NCBI RefSeq assembly: GCF_019679455.1
Contig: NZ_JAIEZQ010000002.1
Location: 310,001 to 374,000, forward strand
Direction: 5' to 3'
Length of the DNA stretch: 64,000 nucleotides
Source: Nocardioides jiangsuensis
GTDB lineage: Bacteria > Actinomycetota > Actinomycetes > Propionibacteriales > Nocardioidaceae
Numbering within the stretch: position 1 is the stretch's first letter; each line of letters starts with the position of its first letter. The notes beneath the pieces are model-generated. The model saw only the letters and a program-made list of their open reading frames with translations. It ran no database searches and had not been told where the DNA came from. Below, piece after piece: positions 11,405 to 21,172 of the stretch. The translations under genes were made by a program, and so were the position numbers.

Positions 11405-11815
11405 TCACGCCTGGGGTGCCTGGGCGATCCGGATCATGTTGCCCGACGGGTCGCGGACGGCGCAGTCGCGGGCACCCCAGGGCTGGTCGGACGGTTCCTG
11501 GAGCACGTCCGCCCCGGACGCGCGTACCTTCTCGAAGGTCGCGTCAAGGTCCGTCGTACGGAAGATCAGGCCGTTCAGCGAGCCCTTGGTCAGCAGCGCC
11601 ATCAGGGCGTCGCCGTCGACGGGCGGGCGGCCGGCATGCGGCTCGGTGAGCACGATCTCGACGTCCGGCTGCGACGGCGTCGTGAGGGTCAGCCAGCGGA
11701 AGCCGTCGGAGGAGACGTCGTTGCGCAGCTCGAGCCCGAGGACGTCGCGGTAGAACGCCAACGCCAGGTCGGGGTCGTGCACGGTCACGAAGCAGTGGGA
11801 GAGCGAAAGGTCCAT
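11405..11815 (-). CDS. VOC family (glyoxalase/bleomycin-resistance type) protein
   Basis: A 136-residue protein with two beta-alpha-beta-beta-beta modules: FVTVHDPDLALAFYRDVLGLEL at the start and DCAVRDPSGNMIRIAQ at the end, where the late acidic and polar positions occupy usual metal-ligand sites. VOC proteins range from glyoxalases to antibiotic-binding and dioxygenase enzymes. The start lies 10 bases after the AraC-type gene's stop, so the two are almost certainly one transcript, and the regulator probably controls this enzyme. Such AraC-VOC pairs are common in actinomycetes; the substrate is unknown. Confidence 0.8.
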   Translation of the reverse strand: MDLSLSHCFVTVHDPDLALAFYRDVLGLELRNDVSSDGFRWLTLTTPSQPDVEIVLTEPHAGRPPVDGDALMALLTKGSLNGLIFRTTDLDATFEKVRASGADVLQEPSDQPWGARDCAVRDPSGNMIRIAQAPQA

Positions 11816-11825
11816 GCCCGCAACG

Positions 11826-12254
11826 CTAGGGCGCCGCGGCCGGAACCGCTTCTCCGTTCCTGCTCGGTCGCGTCCGGTCCTTCGCGACACAGGCCGGCAC
11901 GACCGCGCCCGGGTCGTGGTCACGGGCGCGGTAGGCGGTGGGGCTCTCGCCGACCAGCTCGGTGAAGCGTGAGCTGAACGAGCCGAGCGACGTACAGCCG
12001 ACCGCCATGCACACCTCGGTCACCGTCAGGTCGCCGCGGCGGAGGAGGGCCTTGGCGCGCTCGATGCGGCGGGTCATCAGATAGGCGTACGGCGTCTCGC
12101 CGTACGCCGAGCGGAACTGCCGGGAGAAGTGCGCCGGTGACATGAGCGCGGCCTGCGCGAGGGCCGGTACGTCGAGCGGCCGGGCGTACTCGCGGTCCAT
12201 CAGGTCGCGCGCGCGGCGCAGATGGGCGAGGTTCGCCAGCTCCTCGGGGGTCAC
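11826..12254 (-). CDS. AraC family transcriptional regulator (short, DNA-binding domain only)
   Basis: A 142-residue protein that is nearly all AraC-type double helix-turn-helix: LDVPALAQAALMSPAHFSRQFRSAYGETPYAYL (first HTH), RRIERAKALLRRGDLTVTEVCMAVGCTSLGSFSSRFTELVGESPTAYR (second HTH, here described by its key FSSRF and GESPTAYR elements). There is no separate ligand-binding domain, a layout seen in regulators paired with a VOC gene. GTG at 12254 is preferred because family members begin close to the PEELANLAHL segment; another GTG at 12296 would add 14 residues. Confidence 0.8.
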   Translation of the reverse strand: MTPEELANLAHLRRARDLMDREYARPLDVPALAQAALMSPAHFSRQFRSAYGETPYAYLMTRRIERAKALLRRGDLTVTEVCMAVGCTSLGSFSSRFTELVGESPTAYRARDHDPGAVVPACVAKDRTRPSRNGEAVPAAAP

Positions 12255-12349
12255 CCGACCAGCGTATTCCGCGCACGGGTCGGGCGTGGTGCACACGAGC
12301 TGTCCACCTACGGCGGGCGAGCGGTCGGCTGCGCACGAAGGGGATGTGA

Positions 12350-14113: not shown

Positions 14114-14467
14114 TCAGAACGTCATCACGGGGTCGGACTCGACGGTCCAGGCTGCGAGCTCGTCCATGGTCGAGCGGGGGGCCTCCGGGATCAGGTGGGC
14201 CTCGGTGAGCCCGCGGGCGTCCATGCACGTGCCGCAACAGGCGATGTGGCCGCCGTGGCGAGCGAGCGTGGTCAGCATCCGGTCGAGCGTGTAGTAGCCG
14301 TTCGGCGTCTTCTGTCCGGCAATGGCGCAGGTCACGGCGTCGCCCATCAGGAACAGCGACACCTCGGCGTCGTCCCGTCGGGCGAGTGCGAGCGCGAGAC
14401 GAAGCGCGTTGAAGGTCTCGTCCGCGCCGTACGCCGGACCGTTGACGATGATCAGGATCTTCCTCAC
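14114..14467 (-). CDS. DsrE/DsrF-like family protein (sulfur-carrier type)
   Basis: A 117-residue DsrE-fold protein: KILIIVNGPAYGADETFNALRLALAL at the start, FLMGDAVTCAIAGQKTPNGYY in the middle, and the conserved CGTCMDARG motif near residue 88 that carries reactive cysteines in this family. DsrE proteins bind or relay sulfane sulfur and are often linked to rhodaneses and persulfide metabolism. It is the last gene of a minus-strand cluster with an MFS transporter, an MBL-rhodanese and an ArsR-rhodanese, 114 bases from the MFS stop. GTG start at 14467 matches the usual family start; ATG at 14500 is an alternative. Confidence 0.8.
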   Translation of the reverse strand: MRKILIIVNGPAYGADETFNALRLALALARRDDAEVSLFLMGDAVTCAIAGQKTPNGYYTLDRMLTTLARHGGHIACCGTCMDARGLTEAHLIPEAPRSTMDELAAWTVESDPVMTF

Positions 14468-14581
14468 AAGTCCACAGTTGCCTGCCGGTGAGGTGGCCAA
14501 CCAGGGACGAAAGGCTCTCGAAGGCGTGGCGGAGGGCGGTTTCCGAGCCCGGGTCCGGCTCCCCGACGCCCCGCGGCCAGG

Positions 14582-15898
14582 TCAGGTCTCGTTCGTCACG
14601 TCCTGCTCGGCTGGGGTGGGTCGGTGATGCGTTTCGTACATGCGGACAGCGACCACGAGACCGGACAGTGCCGTCAGTCCGGCAATGGCCCAGATGGCGG
14701 TGTGGATGCCGAGGGCGTCGGCGAGAAGACCGGCGAGCAGGGCGCCGACGGCGAAGCCGCCGTCCCGCCAGAGTCGGTAGACCCCGACAGAGCGGGCGCG
14801 CCAGGCCGGGTGGGCCACGTCGCCGATAGCCGCGAGAAGGGTGGGGTAGACCATCGCGGTCCCGGCGCCGAGGAGGGTGGCGGCGAGGGCCCAGACGGTG
14901 AACACGTCGGCGAGTCCGATCAGTGCGAGGGCGATGGCTTGCAGCCACATGCCTGACGCGATCATCCACTTGCGTCCCCACCGGTCCGACAGGGCGCCGG
15001 TGAACAGCTGGCCGAGACCCCACACGGCCGGGTAGAGCGCGGCGAGGACCCCGATCTTCCCGACGGACAAGCCGGCGCCGGCGAACAGGATCGGGAAGAG
15101 GCCCCAGGCCAGTCCGTCGTTGAGGTTGTTCACCAGCCCGGCCTGGCTGGCCGCGGACAGGGCGGGTTCCTTGAAGCTGGTCTGGATGAACACCTGGCCG
15201 TTGCTCAGCTCGCGGTGGAGGTGGTCGTGCCTGCCGTCGGCGCGCGCGACGTGGCTGGCGGCGTCGAGCCGGGCGTGTTCGCGGGTCTCCTTGACCGCCA
15301 GGGTGGACAGACCCAGCCCGAGGGCCACGAACGCGATGCCGAGGAAGAAGGGTGCCGGACGCAGGCCGTAGGACTCTGCCAGGTAGCCGGTGGCCAGCGC
15401 CGTTGCGGCGACGGCGGTGTACCCGGCGGCCTCGTTCAACCCCATCGCGAGACCTCGACGTGCGGGCCCGACCAGGTCGATCTTCATCACGACGGTGGTG
15501 GACCAGGTCAGACCTTGGCTGATGCCGAGGAACAGGTTCGCGACCAGGACCCACTCCCACGACGGCGCCCAGATCAACATCAGCGGTACCGGCACCGCGA
15601 CCAGCCAGCCGGCGACCAACACCGGCTTGCGGCCGAAGCGGTCCGACCAGGTGCCGGCGAAGTAGTTGGTGGCGGCTTTGGCCAGCCCGAAGACCAGGAT
15701 GTAGCCCAGCCCAGCGGTGTACGCCGTGATCCCGAACTCCTGCTCACCCAACAGCGGCAGGACGGTGCGCTCCTGGCCGAGCATGCCGCCCACGAGAGCG
15801 TTGACCGCCACGAGCAGGGTGAACTGGGCGGCGTTCTGCCGCAGCCCGAGCTCGATCGGACGGACGCCGGCAGTGCCGGGCTTGGTCGCCGGCCTCAC
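14582..15898 (-). CDS. MFS transporter
   Basis: A 438-residue major facilitator with about 12 hydrophobic segments. The loop after helix 2 carries the signature GTWSDRFGRKPVL, and its repeat in the second half is GALSDRWGRKWM. An inserted His/Arg-rich central loop (ARADGRHDHLHRELSNGQ) separates the halves. The GTG start at 15898 overlaps the TGA of the MBL-rhodanese gene (GTGA), showing tight translational coupling. Its substrate is unknown; the setting suggests export of a sulfur or metalloid compound, but this is inference. Confidence 0.85.
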   Translation of the reverse strand: MRPATKPGTAGVRPIELGLRQNAAQFTLLVAVNALVGGMLGQERTVLPLLGEQEFGITAYTAGLGYILVFGLAKAATNYFAGTWSDRFGRKPVLVAGWLVAVPVPLMLIWAPSWEWVLVANLFLGISQGLTWSTTVVMKIDLVGPARRGLAMGLNEAAGYTAVAATALATGYLAESYGLRPAPFFLGIAFVALGLGLSTLAVKETREHARLDAASHVARADGRHDHLHRELSNGQVFIQTSFKEPALSAASQAGLVNNLNDGLAWGLFPILFAGAGLSVGKIGVLAALYPAVWGLGQLFTGALSDRWGRKWMIASGMWLQAIALALIGLADVFTVWALAATLLGAGTAMVYPTLLAAIGDVAHPAWRARSVGVYRLWRDGGFAVGALLAGLLADALGIHTAIWAIAGLTALSGLVVAVRMYETHHRPTPAEQDVTNET

Positions 15899-17253
15899 GC
15901 GCGGACCTCGAGCGGCGTGCCCGTGGCTTCCGCCCAGTCCTGGGGCCCTCCGGCCATTACCGAGACGTCGCGGTGGCCGGCGCGCGCCAACAGGCTCGCT
16001 GCGCCCATGGCGCGTTCGCCGTGACCGCACATCACCACCGTCGGGTCGGCGGGCACGTCGCCAGCGCGGAAGGCCAGCTCTCCGAGCTCGACATGGTCAG
16101 CGCCGGGCACGTGCCCGGTGGCGAACTCGCTGTCCTGACGGATGTCGAGCACTCTCTCGCCGGCCAGGCTGGCCGCTGCGACCAAGGGGATCGTCGTGGT
16201 GGGCTCACCGGCTGCGACCCATCCGGCGATGCCGCCGTCGACCTCGCCGGCGATCCGGTCGTAGCCAACCTTGCGGGCCTGCCAGACGATCTCAGCGGGG
16301 TCCTGGTCGGCGTTGCGGACGATGACGATCGGCCGGGTGGCATCGACGAGCCAGCCGAGCCAGGTGGCGAACGCTGCCCGGAGCGGGATGGAGACCGAGC
16401 CCGGGACGTGGCGGGCGCCGAAGTCGGCTATCGGCCGTACGTCGACCACCTCGGCGCCGGACGCCCGCAGGCGAGCCACCTGTGTGGGTGCGACGGGACG
16501 GAGGCGGTCACCCTCGACGAGGGCGGGGCCACGACGGTTGATCTCGCCGAGACGGAGGAAGTACGGCGGGAACGCGCCGAGGGACGCCAGCAACTGCTGG
16601 AGGAAGGCGTCCTCGCTCGGCGCCCGGAGCAGGGTGTTCGTGGCTCGTTCGGTCCCGATCGTCGACGTGCGCTCCGCACCGGGCGGTGCGGAGCAGAACG
16701 AGCCCGCACCATGGGTCGGCCACACCGCGACCTCGTCGTCGAGCCTCGCCAGGCGCTGAAGCGACCGGTACTGGGCGCGGGCCAGGGCCTCGGTCTGCTC
16801 CGGGGAGACGAGGTCGGTGCGGGCTGCGGACCCGACGATCAACGAGCCGCCGGTGAACACCCCGACCGTCCGGGAACCGTCGAGAACCTGGAAGGCGATG
16901 TGTTCGTGGGTATGACCGGGGGTGGCCAGCGTCCGCAGCGTCAGGCCGCCGAGGTCTACCTCGTCCCCGTCACTCAGACCGGTGTGCGGGTACTCCCGGT
17001 TCCCGGCCGCGGACGCCAGGACCTGGGCGCCGTCGGACGCCGCGAGCTGCAACGCGCCGGTCAGGAAGTCGGCGTGCAGATGGGTGTCTGCGGCATACGC
17101 GACAGTCAGCCGGCGGCGTCCCGCAGCCTCACGCAGCGCACGCAGGTCACGGCTCGCGTCCACCGCCAGCGCGCGCCCGTCCCCGAGGTCCAGCAGGTAT
17201 GCGGAGTTGCCCAGTCCCTCGTCGACCAGAGGAATCACGTCGAGCTCACTCAC
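15895..17253 (-). CDS. MBL-fold persulfide-dioxygenase-like protein fused to two rhodanese domains
   Basis: A 452-residue three-domain protein. The metallo-beta-lactamase domain (1-240) has HLHAD (His58, His60, Asp62) and GHTHEH (from 113), the iron-binding pattern of ETHE1-type persulfide dioxygenases. It is followed by two rhodanese domains. The first (about 250-350) has IVRNADQD where the catalytic Cys should be, so it is probably inactive. The second (355-452) keeps Cys409 in VVMCGHGERA. GTG at 17253 is chosen because AAGGAG lies five bases before it; the GTG at 17316 overlaps the ArsR stop but lacks such a site. The likely role is oxidation or transfer of sulfane sulfur. Confidence 0.85.
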   Translation of the reverse strand: MSELDVIPLVDEGLGNSAYLLDLGDGRALAVDASRDLRALREAAGRRRLTVAYAADTHLHADFLTGALQLAASDGAQVLASAAGNREYPHTGLSDGDEVDLGGLTLRTLATPGHTHEHIAFQVLDGSRTVGVFTGGSLIVGSAARTDLVSPEQTEALARAQYRSLQRLARLDDEVAVWPTHGAGSFCSAPPGAERTSTIGTERATNTLLRAPSEDAFLQQLLASLGAFPPYFLRLGEINRRGPALVEGDRLRPVAPTQVARLRASGAEVVDVRPIADFGARHVPGSVSIPLRAAFATWLGWLVDATRPIVIVRNADQDPAEIVWQARKVGYDRIAGEVDGGIAGWVAAGEPTTTIPLVAAASLAGERVLDIRQDSEFATGHVPGADHVELGELAFRAGDVPADPTVVMCGHGERAMGAASLLARAGHRDVSVMAGGPQDWAEATGTPLEVRA

Positions 17254-17312
17254 TGGATCTCCTTCCTCGTCGAACCGCACCGCGGTCGGCTTTGCAGGTT
17301 CGCGTCCGTTGC

Positions 17313-17990
17313 TCACGACGGCACCGCGGCCTCACGCTCCACGGGCAGGCGCAATGCCGCCCATTCGGGAAAACCGTCCTCGAGCCGAGCCGCCGAGCGG
17401 CCCGCCGCCGACAGCGCACGCACCGCCTCGTCGGCGTACACGCAGTAGGGCCCCCGGCAGTAGGCGACCACGTCCGCACCGGTAGGTATCTGCCCCAGAC
17501 GTGCCTCTAGTGCGCCGATCGGTACGGAGATCGCGCCCGGGATGTGACCAGCCGAGTACTCCGGCTCGGGCCTCACATCGAGCACGACGACGTCGCCTTC
17601 CCGGAGCCGCGCTCGAAGCTGGTCCCGCGTCATCGTGGCCAGCGCGCCGCGGTCACCGACGTAGTCCTCGGCGAGCCGCCCGAGGTCGACCACGTGCTGC
17701 TCGGCCACCTGCCGCATGGTCTGCCACAGCGTGCCGACGAGGGGGCTGGCCAGCGAGTAGTGGATGCGGTTGCCGTCGCGGCGGGTTCGCACGAGGCCTG
17801 CTCGGAGAAGTCGCTGCAGGTGCTGGGACGTGTTGGCGACGCTCTGGTGGATCTCGGTCGCCAGGTCCTCCACGGACCGCTCGCCCTGGAGGAGTACGTC
17901 GACGAGCTCGGCCCGTCGTCCGTTGGCCAGCGCCTTGGCCGACTCGGTCAGCGCATCGAACAGCGCGACCTTCGCTCGGTGGTCCGACAC
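17313..17990 (-). CDS. ArsR-family regulator fused to a rhodanese domain
   Basis: A 225-residue regulator. Residues 1-100 form an ArsR winged helix: RSVEDLATEIHQSVANTSQHLQRL is the helix-turn-helix, followed by the wing VRTRRDGNRIHY. The usual metal-binding Cys motif of helix 3 is absent and there is no Cys in this half. Residues 115-220 are a rhodanese domain whose loop holds Cys178 and Cys183 (CRGPYC). Sensing is therefore more likely through persulfidation or disulfide of these cysteines than through a metal; this is inference. GTG start follows GGAGGC. It is divergent from the methyltransferase gene, with two palindromes between. Confidence 0.9.
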   Translation of the reverse strand: MSDHRAKVALFDALTESAKALANGRRAELVDVLLQGERSVEDLATEIHQSVANTSQHLQRLLRAGLVRTRRDGNRIHYSLASPLVGTLWQTMRQVAEQHVVDLGRLAEDYVGDRGALATMTRDQLRARLREGDVVVLDVRPEPEYSAGHIPGAISVPIGALEARLGQIPTGADVVAYCRGPYCVYADEAVRALSAAGRSAARLEDGFPEWAALRLPVEREAAVPS

Positions 17991-18014
17991 TGCTGCCTCC
18001 TCTGTCCAGACCTA

Positions 18015-18032
18015 TTCAAGAACTCTCTTGAC
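18015..18032. promoter_or_regulatory. candidate ArsR operator, site 1
   Basis: TTCAAGA (18015-18021), four bases, then TCTTGAC (18026-18032): 6 of 7 positions are inverted. It overlaps a TTGACA -35-like hexamer (18028-18033) that would serve the rightward methyltransferase gene, so binding would block that promoter and could also repress the leftward ArsR operon. Confidence 0.6.
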
Positions 18033-18055
18033 ATTATCTGAAGGCGAGGAGTTTA

Positions 18056-18073
18056 TTCAAGTATTCACTTGAA
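18056..18073. promoter_or_regulatory. candidate ArsR operator, site 2
   Basis: A perfect inverted repeat, TTCAAGT (18056-18062) and ACTTGAA (18067-18073), with the same 4-base spacer as site 1 and its centre 41 bases away (about four helical turns). It lies next to the probable -10/start region of the methyltransferase gene and just before its ribosome site. Confidence 0.65.
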
Positions 18074-18092
18074 CTGATGGAGGAGGCGCCCG

Positions 18093-18866
18093 ATGACCAC
18101 GACCACAGTGGATGTCGATCAGCTCGAGGCGAAGGTCAAGGACATGTACCGCCTCGTGGCACAGGAGCCCCAGGGCAGATTCCACTTCGAGCTTGGCCGG
18201 GAGCTCGCCGTGCGCCTCGGGTACGACCCAGAACGGCTTGCCGCGGTCCCGCCGGGTGCCGTGGACTCGTTCGCGGGTGTGGGTCACTTCTTCGACCTGG
18301 CCTCCCCGGGACCCGGCGAGACCGTCGTGGACCTGGGGAGCGGCGCGGGCATGGACGCCTTCTATGCAGCCGGCCTGGTCGGTCCGACCGGGCACGTGGT
18401 GGGTGTCGACTTCACGACCGAGCAGCTCGCGAAGGCTCGACGGCTCGCCACGGAGACCGGTGTGGCCCAGATCGAGTTCCGCGAAGGGCGCATCGAGGCA
18501 CTTCCGGTCGCGGATGCCGTTGCCGACTACGTGATCTCCAACGGCGTCATCAACCTCTGCCCGGACAAGGCCACCGTGTTCGCGGAGGCGGCGCGGGTGC
18601 TCCGACCCGGCGGCATGCTCGCCATCGCGGACATCGTTACCGAGCGGCCGCTCACCGAGGCCATCGTCTGCAACGCGGACCTGTGGGCCTCCTGCATCGG
18701 CGGCGCTCCCCAGAAGGACACGTATCTCGGGTTGATCGAGGCTGCGGGCTTCACCGTCGAACGGGTGCGCGCCAACCCGTACGCGTTCCTCTCCGCCCAA
18801 GCGCGCAGCGCCAGCCTCAGCTACGGGGTCAAGAGCATCTCGGTGCTCGCCGCAAAGGGATCCTGA
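18093..18866 (+). CDS. SAM-dependent methyltransferase (ArsM/UbiE-like)
   Basis: A 257-residue class I methyltransferase: motif I VVDLGSGAGMDAF (78-90), GVDFTTEQL (104-112), and the post-motif region VISNGVINLCPDKATVF. It is of the type often annotated as arsenite methyltransferase. Cys156 (NLCPDK), Cys193 and Cys201 (WASCIGG) match family cysteine positions, but the N-terminal cysteine of classical ArsM is replaced (SFAGVGHFF), so the substrate may be arsenite or another thiophile. The start follows GGAGGAGG. The gene is divergent from the ArsR-rhodanese operon and is probably controlled by it. Confidence 0.8.
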   Translation: MTTTTVDVDQLEAKVKDMYRLVAQEPQGRFHFELGRELAVRLGYDPERLAAVPPGAVDSFAGVGHFFDLASPGPGETVVDLGSGAGMDAFYAAGLVGPTGHVVGVDFTTEQLAKARRLATETGVAQIEFREGRIEALPVADAVADYVISNGVINLCPDKATVFAEAARVLRPGGMLAIADIVTERPLTEAIVCNADLWASCIGGAPQKDTYLGLIEAAGFTVERVRANPYAFLSAQARSASLSYGVKSISVLAAKGS

Positions 18867-18898: not shown

Positions 18899-19014
18899 GC
18901 GGCGCCCGGGCGCTGGCCGCTGTGGCGCAGGTGAAAACTCCCCGCTTGTCCTGGTCGACACGACCCGGAGGCCCTAGCCTGATCCCACATATCTCGCGAA
19001 AGGTCCGAACCGCC

Positions 19015-20811
19015 GTGCGCCCTCGGCCGCTCCACGTCCTCTGCTCGGTCTTCTTGTTGTGCGGCACGGCACTGTCGGTGGTAGCCCCGGTGGCTGCCAG
19101 TGCAGCGACGTCCACGTCATGCACGATCCGCGGGACTGCGAAAGCCGAGGTGCTGGTCGGGACCTCGCGTCGCGACGTGATCTGCGGCCTCGGTGGTGCA
19201 GACGTCGTGCGTGGACGCGGCGGCGACGACCTCCTCAAGGGCGGCGCCGGGCCTGACCGACTCGTGGGCGGCACCGGGGCCGACGTTCTTCTCTCCGGAG
19301 GAGGAGCCGACAGGGTCTATGGCGGCGACGGAACCGACCGGGTTCGCGGTGGGGCGATGGCAGACATGCTCGACGGAGGTGACGGCGCCGACTTGTTGTA
19401 CGGCGACCTCGGAGCCGACCGGCTCTCGGGCGGCCTGGGCGGGGACCGTGTGGTCGGCCAGGCGGGCGCGGACGTGCTGAGGGGCGCCGGAGGAGCGGAC
19501 ACACTCCTGGGCGGTGACGGCAACGACGACCTCGACGGGGGTCCCCAGCCCGACACGCTCGACGGCGGGGCCGGCACGAACTGGTGCACAGTGGGCGCAG
19601 ACGACGTCCAGCACCGCTGTGTCTACGACCTCGCGCCACCGCAAGCGCTCCAGGTGACCACGTCGGCCACCCAGGTGGATGTCACCGACGCTGACCGGGA
19701 GGTCACCGTGCGCGTCCATGTCACCGACGACACCGGAGTCGGATCCGTCCGGGTCGGTTCGTTCGAGCAGGCCGACGACTTCCCCATGGCGCCCGCGATG
19801 CTTGATTCCGGCACCGTCCGCGACGGCTGGTGGGAGACCACCCTGGTGTTCCGTCGTTGGAGCCTGCCAGGTACCTACCGCTTCAGCATCTACGTCAGAG
19901 ACAGGATCGGACGCGCGTCGTCCGCTCAGTTCGAGGACCCTGTCATCGAGGTGCGTGACGCCACTCCGGACACCGAGCTTCCCCGTGTCACAGTGCTCTT
20001 GAGCCCCACCCCGGACACGACAGTCGACGTGCGGACCCAGTACTCGAGCGTGCTGGTGAAGGCTCGGCTGACCGACGTGCTGTCGGGGGTGTCGGACGCT
20101 CAAGCGTGCATCCACGAGCCGCTGGTCGACGGGCGAGAGATCGCAATGTACTGCGCCACGATGCGTCGGCTCAGCGGTGACGTCCACGACGGGGTCTGGA
20201 GCGCCGACCTCGGGGTCGACAGGGGAGCTGTCTCGGGCGACTGGAACGTCGAGATCTCCACGACGGACCGTGCCCACGCGGAGACGTGGACGTCCATCTC
20301 ATGGCTCGGCCCCGACCTGTGGATGTGGGCCGGGGGCGCGGACCCGGCGACCAAACAGCCTCTCCCCGACGACAGGGGCAGGTTCACCGTCATCGGCCGA
20401 CCGCGGATGAATGACAGCACCCCGCCGGAGATCGTGTCCGCTGTCCCCTCACCGACTGAGGTGGACACGCTGGCCGGCCCTGCCAGGGTGGACTTCGCGG
20501 TCCGGGCCACGGACACCTCCGGCTCAGGCGTCAGCGGGGTCGGGGTACGTCTGGTGTCCGCGGACCCGAACGGCCCCCGGGACCTCTACGAGTCGCTCAC
20601 GATGACGAGCGGCGACGCCCTTGACGGCACCTGGACCGACTCCATCGTGCTGCCGCAGGGCACACCACCGGGTACCTACTACCTCGAGGTCATCACCTGG
20701 GACCAGATCGACAACCAGCAGACGTACGTCTCCTCGGGACATCCCGACGCTGGCTCCTTCGACTTGCTCCCGGGCGACCCGACCGTCACCGTGGTCGAAT
20801 CCACCCCGTAG
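19015..20811 (+). CDS. secreted RTX-type calcium-binding repeat protein
   Basis: A 598-residue exported protein. The N-terminus (VRPRPLHVLCSVFLLCGTAL...ASA) is a signal peptide. Residues about 50-190 hold a run of RTX nonapeptides of the GGxGxDxLx type (for example GGADVVRGRGGDDLL, GGDGADLLYGD, GGDGNDDLDGG), which bind calcium in a beta roll. The rest is several Ig-like/beta-sandwich-like units (DDTGVGSVRVGSF, DSTPPEIVSAVPSPTEVDTL, WDQIDNQQTY). No type I secretion genes are near, so Sec export is expected. GTG at 19015 follows AAAGG; an upstream ATG at 18922 would put 31 residues before the signal. Confidence 0.8.
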   Translation: MRPRPLHVLCSVFLLCGTALSVVAPVAASAATSTSCTIRGTAKAEVLVGTSRRDVICGLGGADVVRGRGGDDLLKGGAGPDRLVGGTGADVLLSGGGADRVYGGDGTDRVRGGAMADMLDGGDGADLLYGDLGADRLSGGLGGDRVVGQAGADVLRGAGGADTLLGGDGNDDLDGGPQPDTLDGGAGTNWCTVGADDVQHRCVYDLAPPQALQVTTSATQVDVTDADREVTVRVHVTDDTGVGSVRVGSFEQADDFPMAPAMLDSGTVRDGWWETTLVFRRWSLPGTYRFSIYVRDRIGRASSAQFEDPVIEVRDATPDTELPRVTVLLSPTPDTTVDVRTQYSSVLVKARLTDVLSGVSDAQACIHEPLVDGREIAMYCATMRRLSGDVHDGVWSADLGVDRGAVSGDWNVEISTTDRAHAETWTSISWLGPDLWMWAGGADPATKQPLPDDRGRFTVIGRPRMNDSTPPEIVSAVPSPTEVDTLAGPARVDFAVRATDTSGSGVSGVGVRLVSADPNGPRDLYESLTMTSGDALDGTWTDSIVLPQGTPPGTYYLEVITWDQIDNQQTYVSSGHPDAGSFDLLPGDPTVTVVESTP

Positions 20812-20819
20812 ACACAGGC

Positions 20820-21082
20820 TGTTCACAGGGGGACACGTCAGCACGGTCGGACGACCAGTTGCGGCACACCGCAGCCTCGGTCAAGCGGTTCAGCGGATGC
20901 TGGGCCACGTCTCGGCCACCATCACGCTGGGCCGCTACGGCCACCTGTTCCCGGACGAGCTCGACGCGGTGGCTGCGCGACTGGACGAGGCGGCCCGCCA
21001 GGCGGGTGTGTACAGGATGTGTACCGAGGTGGATCCGATGCTGTTCGACGAGGAGGTGCCGGATCGTGAAAAGGCCGTCTGA
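20820..21082 (+). pseudogene. remnant of a tyrosine-type site-specific integrase (C-terminal end, frameshifted)
   Basis: The end of an integrase is recognisable in two frames. First comes QLRHTAAS, the catalytic Arg-His box, from about 20856. About ten residues are then missing or out of phase, and in the next frame AVQRMLGHVSATITLGRYGHLFPDELDAVAARLDEAAR follows (key residues: LGH and the Tyr nucleophile of GRYGHLF), ending in TGA at 21080-21082. The N-terminal and core-binding parts are absent. It ends 17 bases from the 3' end of tRNA-Arg(CCU), the classic position of an integrase relative to its attachment site. Confidence 0.75.
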
Positions 21083-21099
21083 CCTGCGCTTTTGCTGGG

Positions 21100-21172
21100 T
21101 GCCCCCGGCAGGATTCGAACCTGCGACGCACGGTTTAGGAAACCGACGCTCTATCCCCTGAGCTACGAGGGC
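21100..21172 (-). tRNA. tRNA-Arg (anticodon CCT)
   Basis: The reverse strand reads as a 73-base cloverleaf: acceptor GCCCTCG paired with CGGGGGC (one G-T), D-arm GCTCAGGGGATAGAGC, anticodon loop TTCCTAA giving CCT, and T-arm GCAGGTTCGAATCCTGC. CCA is not encoded. This arginine tRNA is a common target of actinobacterial integrative elements, which fits the integrase remnant on its 3' side. Confidence 0.95.

What the first reader, a model, noticed from the sequence alone, without database searches (positions are those of the whole stretch)
14114..18866. ArsR-rhodanese / MBL-rhodanese / MFS / DsrE cluster divergent from an ArsM-like methyltransferase
Seen: DsrE, MFS, MBL plus two rhodanese domains, and ArsR plus rhodanese are coupled on one strand (GTGA overlap MBL to MFS; short overlap or spacing elsewhere), and a methyltransferase with three cysteines is divergent. 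The ArsR half has no cysteine and lacks the metal motif of helix 3, while its rhodanese half carries CRGPYC. Known: ETHE1-type MBL enzymes and rhodaneses handle persulfides; SqrR/BigR-type ArsR proteins sense sulfane sulfur by cysteines. Inference: a regulator that senses persulfide or a thiophilic toxin through its rhodanese loop, controlling sulfur oxidation, export and methylation as one system.
Basis: partly seen in the sequence, partly recalled or inferred. Interest (0 to 1): 0.72.

Follow-up and report, generated by a model that had tools for sequence, protein, structure and literature searches.

The report
Repressor with built-in sulfur-sensing rhodanese
A soil actinomycete carries a small operon run by a gene-switch protein whose own DNA-binding half has no cysteines but which is fused to a sulfur-handling domain with an unusual pair of cysteines, most likely making it a detector of reactive sulfur that turns on genes to oxidise, export and methylate it; the same set recurs in many bacteria and appears to be unstudied.

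Summary
ArsR-rhodanese, MBL-rhodanese-rhodanese, MFS and a YchN-like DsrE lie on one strand; an ArsM-like methyltransferase is divergent. Two TCAA-N8-TTGA palindromes in the shared promoter look like operators. The strict form occurs nowhere else in the 3.97-Mb genome, and the motif precedes 66 of 130 fusion genes (about 1% background).

The core is a real module. In 247 genomes of the class, the MFS lies beside ArsR-rhodanese in 20 of 25 cases, the cluster-type MBL in 17 of 17, DsrE in 4 of 6; the methyltransferase only in 1 of 11.

Two corrections. The MBL lacks the Asp iron ligand of persulfide dioxygenases (Gly instead). The methyltransferase is not a standard arsenite methyltransferase; its Cys201 is selenocysteine (UGA, or UAG in Geodermatophilaceae) in 14 related genomes, all with SelB.

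No arsenic genes were recognised nearby. Best reading: a sulfane-sulfur-sensing repressor using a CX4C rhodanese loop, controlling sulfur oxidation and export. No biochemistry exists.

The parts
17313..17990 (-). ArsR-rhodanese fusion repressor, 225 aa: winged-helix ArsR half (about residues 1-100), linker helix 103-111, rhodanese 116-220
   Evidence: Pfam HTH_5 4e-9 and Rhodanese 1.6e-16; AlphaFold2 model pLDDT 92.6; best PDB match Mb0332 HTH fragment
17442..17459 (-). Codons of the rhodanese active-site loop C178-R-G-P-Y-C183 (CX4C), the proposed sensing dithiol
   Evidence: Both Cys conserved in 92 of 93 homologues and 42 of 42 found without that seed; CX4C in 137 of 144 fused against 8 of 151 unfused rhodaneses
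15895..17253 (-). MBL - rhodanese-like - rhodanese protein, 452 aa (ORF opens at 17316, but GTG 17253 has a strong SD and matches the homologues' start)
   Evidence: Pfam Lactamase_B and two Rhodanese stretches; AF2 pLDDT 92.1 and TM 0.89 to 3tp9; 17 of 17 cluster-type homologues beside ArsR-rhodanese
16846..16848 (-). Gly136 codon, at the position of the Asp iron ligand of persulfide dioxygenases
   Evidence: G in 63 and D in 6 of 69 MBL-rhodanese homologues; Asp in 3tp9, 3r2u, BpPRF and 9rhq
14582..15898 (-). MFS transporter, 438 aa, coupled to the MBL gene by a GTGA overlap
   Evidence: Pfam MFS_1 2.9e-49; 20 of 25 homologues in the class lie within 5 kb of ArsR-rhodanese
14114..14464 (-). 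DsrE-family (YchN-like) protein, 116 aa, with C77-G-T-C80
   Evidence: Pfam DsrE 4.5e-22; PDB 1jx7 YchN 3.6e-24; 4 of 6 homologues in the class next to ArsR-rhodanese
18093..18866 (+). Divergent ArsM-like SAM methyltransferase, 257 aa
   Evidence: Methyltransf_31 7.2e-32; NF008823 215 bits, below cut-off 263
18693..18695 (+). Cys201 codon (TGC) of the methyltransferase; in-frame TGA or TAG in 14 related genomes (predicted selenocysteine)
18016..18031 (.). Proximal operator-like palindrome TCAAGAACTCTCTTGA
18057..18072 (.). Distal operator-like palindrome TCAAGTATTCACTTGA, 41 bp from the first
18033..18060 (-). Predicted arsR promoter (-35 TTGAAT 18060-18055, -10 GATAAT 18038-18033): the -35 overlaps the distal palindrome, the -10 abuts the proximal one
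   Evidence: one site found, 0.0 expected in shuffles

Best explanation
The regulator is most likely a repressor that binds two palindromes covering its own promoter and that of the divergent methyltransferase gene. Its rhodanese loop carries two cysteines instead of the usual Cys...Arg: Cys178 accepts a sulfane sulfur from a persulfide, polysulfide or upstream sulfurtransferase, and Cys183 resolves it into a di- or polysulfide bridge, so that the dimer leaves DNA. The derepressed operon makes an MBL-rhodanese that removes or oxidises persulfide sulfur and an MFS protein that exports the product (the role TauE plays in the CsoR-controlled circuit). A DsrE carrier and a methyltransferase are optional accessories. 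Shown by sequence comparison: the fusion, the CX4C signature, the operator-like sites, the conserved module. Inferred: ligand, sulfur-bridge chemistry, repression, enzyme activity, transported substrate.
For: CX4C loop in 137 of 144 fused against 8 of 151 unfused rhodaneses; ArsR half without cysteine in 76 of 93 and 35 of 42, so the loop holds the only conserved cysteines. Loop-end Arg/Thr/Ser is needed for sulfur transfer from thiosulfate in characterised rhodaneses (PMC8533005), so a Cys there points to sensing rather than thiosulfate sulfurtransferase catalysis. Operator-like sites in 66 of 130 loci against about 1% background, often paired 41-42 bp apart, with no other strict site in the genome, overlapping a predicted promoter. 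Module linkage. Sulfur neighbours: cysteine desulfurase, TusA, TauE, YeeE, DsrE. Related cysteine-based ArsR sensors form sulfur bridges (PMC10509353, PMC12423496). An analogous Streptomyces circuit pairs a CsoR sulfane-sulfur sensor with an MBL-rhodanese PDO and TauE (PMC7533328), and the MBL proteins beside CsoR and/or TauE in the Streptomyces genomes sampled are mostly of the same Gly type.
Against: No ligand, DNA-binding or expression data. CX4C could equally bind thiophilic metals or form a redox disulfide. The MBL lacks the Asp iron ligand; replacing that Asp in AcPDO leaves 0.5-2% activity (PMC6060420). About half of the fusion genes lack this palindrome (more distant members seem to have others), and some fusions on plasmids sit near mercury or copper genes rather than sulfur genes.
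Confidence: 0.6

Rival explanations
1. The CX4C loop senses a thiophilic metal or metalloid (As(III), Hg(II), Se or Te species); the MFS exports it and the ArsM-like enzyme methylates it.
For: The family is annotated 'metalloregulator' and NF033788 scores above cut-off; the methyltransferase is related to arsenite methyltransferases; some homologues lie near mer or copper genes on plasmids.
Against: No arsenic genes in the 15 annotated neighbourhoods viewed nor in the neighbours scanned of unlinked methyltransferases. The methyltransferase lacks ArsM C72 and misses the curated cut-off. It is optional, while the MBL-rhodanese is near constant.
Confidence: 0.15
2. The rhodanese half is loaded by protein-to-protein sulfur relay (cysteine desulfurase, TusA, DsrE), so the repressor reads intracellular sulfur flux rather than free persulfide.
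For: Cysteine desulfurase near the fusion in 6 of 21 and TusA in 2 of 21 class loci; desulfurase immediately downstream of arsR in two Streptomyces plasmids; DsrE is a direct neighbour in several phyla.
Against: Most loci lack a desulfurase or TusA nearby, and the window has only DsrE.
Confidence: 0.15
3. The regulator is a general thiol-redox switch (H2O2, disulfide or hypochlorite) that forms a C178-C183 disulfide.
For: A vicinal dithiol can form a disulfide; RexT-type ArsR proteins sense H2O2 through two cysteines (PMC10509353).
Against: No peroxidase or reductase partners recur; the partners are sulfur enzymes; the rhodanese fold is specialised for persulfide.
Confidence: 0.08

Closest known systems
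SqrR / BigR / HlyU / SoxR / sHdrR persulfide-sensing ArsR repressors
   Same: ArsR winged-helix fold (SqrR and HlyU among the structural matches); sulfur gene neighbourhood; a two-cysteine sensor
   Different: The known pair lies inside the ArsR fold; here that half has no conserved cysteine and the pair is in a fused rhodanese. The published ArsR network left out proteins over 150 aa (PMC10509353), so fusions were not surveyed there.
Mb0332 (M. bovis), the counterpart of M. tuberculosis Rv0324 (equivalence from memory)
   Same: Best structural and sequence match of the ArsR half (42-43% identity); the solved piece is residues 1-100 of a longer protein. Rv0324 deletion gives bedaquiline hypersensitivity (PMC9480834)
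   Different: No ligand known; its rhodanese half (recalled, not tested here) and neighbours were not compared
CsoR-controlled sulfane-sulfur circuit of Streptomyces coelicolor (ScCsoR, ScPDO, TauE, Rhod)
   Same: A sulfane-sulfur sensor controlling an MBL-rhodanese and an exporter (PMC7533328)
   Different: ArsR-rhodanese replaces CsoR; MFS replaces TauE; the MBLs are only about 36-42% identical. The window's genome also has two MBL paralogues of the Gly type, one of them TauE-linked.
Type III persulfide dioxygenases / CstB (PDB 3r2u), PDB 3tp9
   Same: MBL-rhodanese-like-rhodanese architecture, Phe in place of the third His, Arg-Asp pair, conserved Cys
   Different: Asp iron ligand replaced by Gly
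Selenoprotein arsenite methyltransferases (UxxG motif; NF008823)
   Same: Homologues in sibling clusters carry UIAG at the aligned site
   Different: The window protein has Cys; ArsM C72 is absent; score below cut-off; sulfur context
TsoR / TsoB selenoprotein system (NCBIfam NF045707, NF045694)
   Same: ArsR-type regulator family and a rhodanese-like protein of one naming series; TsoB has a UxxxxU loop with the same spacing as CX4C (PMC13188914)
   Different: Separate proteins; only weak similarity to the window protein

Membership tests
Persulfide-sensing ArsR (SqrR/BigR cluster) | ArsR winged-helix fold | tested here: met
Persulfide-sensing ArsR (SqrR/BigR cluster) | Two conserved cysteines within the ArsR domain | tested here: not met
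   0 Cys in the window ArsR half and in 76 of 93 homologues
Persulfide-sensing ArsR (SqrR/BigR cluster) | Sulfur bridge on reaction with persulfide, release from DNA | not testable with these tools
   needs protein and mass spectrometry
ArsR/SmtB metalloregulator | Curated family model NF033788 | tested here: met
   70.8 bits, cut-off 55
ArsR/SmtB metalloregulator | Cys motif in helix 3 (CxC) | tested here: not met
   motif definition from PMC10509353
Catalytic rhodanese (regulator's domain) | Six-residue loop starting with Cys and ending in Arg/Thr/Ser | tested here: not met
   Cys present, loop end is Cys183; rule from PMC8533005
Type III persulfide dioxygenase / CstB | MBL - rhodanese-like - rhodanese architecture | tested here: met
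Type III persulfide dioxygenase / CstB | 2-His-1-Asp iron site | tested here: not met
   both His kept, Asp is Gly136
Type III persulfide dioxygenase / CstB | Persulfide dioxygenase activity | not testable with these tools
   needs enzyme assay; ScPDO, probably of the same Gly type, has activity
Arsenite methyltransferase ArsM | Conserved cysteines C72, C174, C224 (recalled) aligned to solved ArsM | tested here: not met
   C174 equivalent present (Cys201), C72 is Val; the protein ends too early for a confident C224 match
Arsenite methyltransferase ArsM | NF008823 curated cut-off | tested here: not met
   215 of 263 bits
DsrE / YchN | DsrE fold family with Cys motif | tested here: met
   Pfam 78.8 bits; 1jx7; C77 and C80 in 15 of 15
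Rv0324-type ArsR-rhodanese | Same two-domain protein, orthologous | tested here: inconclusive
   only the HTH fragment of Mb0332 could be compared

The most novel reading that the evidence does not exclude
A new class of sulfur sensor: an ArsR repressor that has moved its sensing dithiol out of the ArsR fold into a fused rhodanese whose catalytic loop-end Arg became Cys, controlling a widespread sulfur-export module whose MBL enzyme has lost an iron ligand and whose optional methyltransferase is a Cys/Sec enzyme acting on sulfur or selenium rather than arsenic.
Probability: 0.4. Interest if true: 0.75.

Novelty: new variant of a known kind. Interest (0 to 1): 0.62.

Why it matters
ArsR sensors of sulfane sulfur are defined by two cysteines inside the ArsR fold, and the main published survey excluded longer proteins. 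A large, phylum-spanning set of ArsR-rhodanese fusions, annotated simply as metalloregulators, would be a second design: a sulfurtransferase converted into a sensor by one loop-end substitution. The best structural match is the DNA-binding half of the mycobacterial protein Mb0332, whose counterpart Rv0324 affects bedaquiline tolerance without a known signal, so the idea gives a testable ligand. The Gly-type MBL-rhodaneses question how a persulfide dioxygenase works without its Asp ligand.

Tried and rejected
Arsenic detoxification: looked for arsenic genes around the fusion in 15 annotated plasmid neighbourhoods and around unlinked methyltransferases; none recognised. All five genes as an obligatory unit: rejected by the class sample (methyltransferase 1 of 11, DsrE 4 of 6). 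The upstream MBL start at GTG 17316: rejected in favour of GTG 17253. A premature stop as an error in homologous methyltransferases: rejected, because the stop sits at one site in 14 genomes, is TAG exactly in the two Geodermatophilaceae (a family known to use UAG for Sec, PMC5330540), and all 14 have SelB over cut-off. A bacterial SECIS could not be shown convincingly: hairpins follow the codon in several cases, but no common motif was tested. Literature: 10 searches of an open-access library only; the primary Rv0324 paper is not held. The genome contigs sample used AYCRGPYC as one of six seeds, so conservation was re-checked on seed-free samples.
Full report
What is there. The window holds a four-gene block on the minus strand, arsR-rhodanese (17990-17313), MBL-rhodanese-rhodanese (17253-15895), MFS (15898-14582) and a YchN-like dsrE (14464-14114), and a divergent ArsM-like methyltransferase (18093-18866). 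MBL and MFS overlap by GTGA. The MBL ORF opens at 17316, but conserved sequence starts near GTG 17253, which has a GGAAGGAG a few bases upstream, so arsR and MBL are 59 bp apart. DsrE begins 117 bp after the MFS stop.

The regulator. AlphaFold2 gives a confident two-domain model (pLDDT 92.6): an ArsR winged helix, a linker helix and a rhodanese. Foldseek finds Mb0332 residues 1-100 as the best match, then single rhodaneses, SqrR and HlyU; none of the top matches covers both domains. The ArsR half has no cysteine in the window and in 76 of 93 homologues; the rhodanese loop CRGPYC keeps both cysteines in 92 of 93. One of the six seeds used to collect those homologues was AYCRGPYC, so I repeated the test on proteins found by whole-genome search without seeds: 42 of 42 keep CX4C and 35 of 42 have no cysteine in the ArsR half. 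As a control, unfused rhodaneses and rhodanese domains of other proteins in the fetched loci have Arg at the loop end in most cases and CX4C in only 8 of 151, against 137 of 144 for fused ones. In characterised rhodaneses the loop-end Arg or Thr is needed to take sulfur from thiosulfate, and all 13 solved ones surveyed end in Arg, Thr or Ser (PMC8533005). The fused domain has therefore exchanged a catalytic residue for a second thiol.

The operator. Between the divergent genes are two 16-bp palindromes, TCAAGAACTCTCTTGA (18016-18031) and TCAAGTATTCACTTGA (18057-18072), 41 bp apart, about four helical turns. The pattern TCAAGN6CTTGA occurs only at these two places in the 3.97-Mb genome. TCAA-N8-TTGA lies upstream of 66 of 130 fusion genes against 0.9% of 185-bp stretches of the same loci, often as a pair 41-42 bp apart. 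A sigma-70-like promoter for arsR lies between them, its -35 overlapping the distal site and its -10 abutting the proximal one; on the other strand a TTGACA at 18028-18033 overlaps the proximal site (read by eye). This is the layout of an autorepressor that also covers the methyltransferase promoter. More distant fusions lack this palindrome; four of them have TCCA-N8-TGGA instead.

The module. I sampled 247 genomes of the class (distances computed). ArsR-rhodanese occurs in 29. The MFS family occurs in 25, of which 20 are within 5 kb of ArsR-rhodanese. MBL proteins at 55% identity or more occur in 17, all 17 within 5 kb; the next MBLs fall to about 43% identity or less and mostly belong to other loci. 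DsrE occurs in 6, four of them linked. The methyltransferase occurs in 11, only the window's linked, although it shares genomes with ArsR-rhodanese more often than expected (7 of 11, p = 4e-5). Among the closest relatives of the fusion the methyltransferase is usually divergent, as here; in Acidimicrobiia and Geodermatophilaceae it usually follows arsR. Cysteine desulfurase, TusA, TauE, YeeE and a second DsrE-like family recur as neighbours. The annotated plasmid neighbourhoods contain no arsenic genes; a few have mercury or copper genes.

The MBL enzyme. It resembles type III persulfide dioxygenases: Foldseek TM 0.89 to 3tp9, then 3r2u and BpPRF. The two His ligands, the Arg-Asp pair (R145, D147) and C187 are invariant in the alignment, and the third His is Phe, as in type III enzymes (PMC6060420). 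But the Asp ligand is Gly: FTGGSL where 3tp9, 3r2u, BpPRF and 9rhq have GD. This is a subfamily trait: 49 of 53 MBL-rhodaneses near a fusion and 14 of 16 others have Gly. The Gly type includes most of the Streptomyces proteins next to CsoR and/or TauE, the arrangement of ScPDO, which has measured dioxygenase activity (Vmax 1.19 umol O2 per min per mg). I did not see the ScPDO sequence itself, so that link is inferred. Mutating the Asp in AcPDO leaves 0.5-2% activity. The window enzyme may thus be a slow dioxygenase, use another ligand, or act mainly as a sulfurtransferase.

The methyltransferase. It aligns with solved ArsM, but C72 is Val, only the C174 equivalent (Cys201) is present, and its score is below the curated cut-off. 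In 14 related genomes the codon at Cys201 is an in-frame stop inside an otherwise conserved frame (DLWTG-stop-IAGG): TAG in Blastococcus and Modestobacter, TGA in the other twelve. Geodermatophilaceae are known to insert selenocysteine at UAG (PMC5330540). SelB is over cut-off in all 14 genomes and in 1 of the 8 Cys-type genomes (Fisher p = 5e-5, or 4e-4 if one borderline genome is counted). Selenoprotein arsenite methyltransferases with a UxxG motif are already listed (PMC13188914), so the Sec form is known; a link to ArsR was not mentioned there. Cys/Sec exchange marks Cys201 as a reactive residue. Neighbours of unlinked homologues include OsmC and DsrE-like proteins, again no arsenic genes.

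Interpretation. Shown by comparison: fusion, CX4C signature, operator-like sites, conserved ArsR-rhodanese/MBL/MFS module, Gly-type MBL, Cys/Sec methyltransferase. Inferred: that the fusion is a repressor, that its ligand is sulfane sulfur, that a sulfur bridge releases DNA, and that the MFS exports the oxidised product. The last step rests on analogy with the CsoR-PDO-TauE circuit. I give 0.6 to sulfane-sulfur sensing through the rhodanese loop, 0.15 to metal or metalloid sensing, 0.15 to protein-relay sensing, and less to a general redox switch.

Novelty. ArsR sulfane-sulfur sensors are known, and fusions of this type are common in databases under 'metalloregulator'. I found no study of such a fusion in the open-access library; subscription papers were not searchable, so this is not proof of absence. 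I rate it a new variant of a known kind.

Noticed in passing
window 18693-18695; L058, L059, L061, L062, L064, L065, L069, L071, L072, L085-L087, L103, L110, L115: Homologous methyltransferases near ArsR-rhodanese have in-frame TGA (TAG in Blastococcus and Modestobacter) at the window's Cys201: predicted selenoproteins that ordinary annotation would probably truncate.
   Followed up: yes
window 16846-16848; L049, L175-L185, L188: A large subfamily of actinobacterial MBL-rhodaneses has Gly in place of the Asp iron ligand of persulfide dioxygenases, including most Streptomyces members next to CsoR and/or TauE.
   Followed up: partly
G000:C2:446268-448325 (L049) and G000:C3:235906-237255 (L188): The same genome has two further MBL-rhodanese loci, one next to rhodaneses and one next to a TauE-like exporter, i.e. 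parallel sulfur circuits.
   Followed up: partly
L196, L197, L038, L044 upstream of the fusion gene: More distant fusions lack TCAA-N8-TTGA but some have TCCA-N8-TGGA palindromes, perhaps a second operator class.
   Followed up: no
L217 (Bosea plasmid), L116 and other loci: A nucleoside phosphorylase gene lies directly downstream of ArsR-rhodanese in Bosea; a similar ORF family recurs in about 8 fetched loci.
   Followed up: no
window 21098-21172 and about 20860-21030: tRNA-Arg(CCT) with what reads like the C-terminal end of a tyrosine recombinase just beside it (no Pfam match for the frame tested): possible remnant of an integrated element.
   Followed up: no
window 18922-20811: Secreted-looking protein with RTX calcium-binding repeats directly after the methyltransferase gene; no sign that it belongs to the cluster.
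   Followed up: no
window 11405-12296: AraC-type regulator and a glyoxalase-family protein, adjacent on the minus strand.
   Followed up: no
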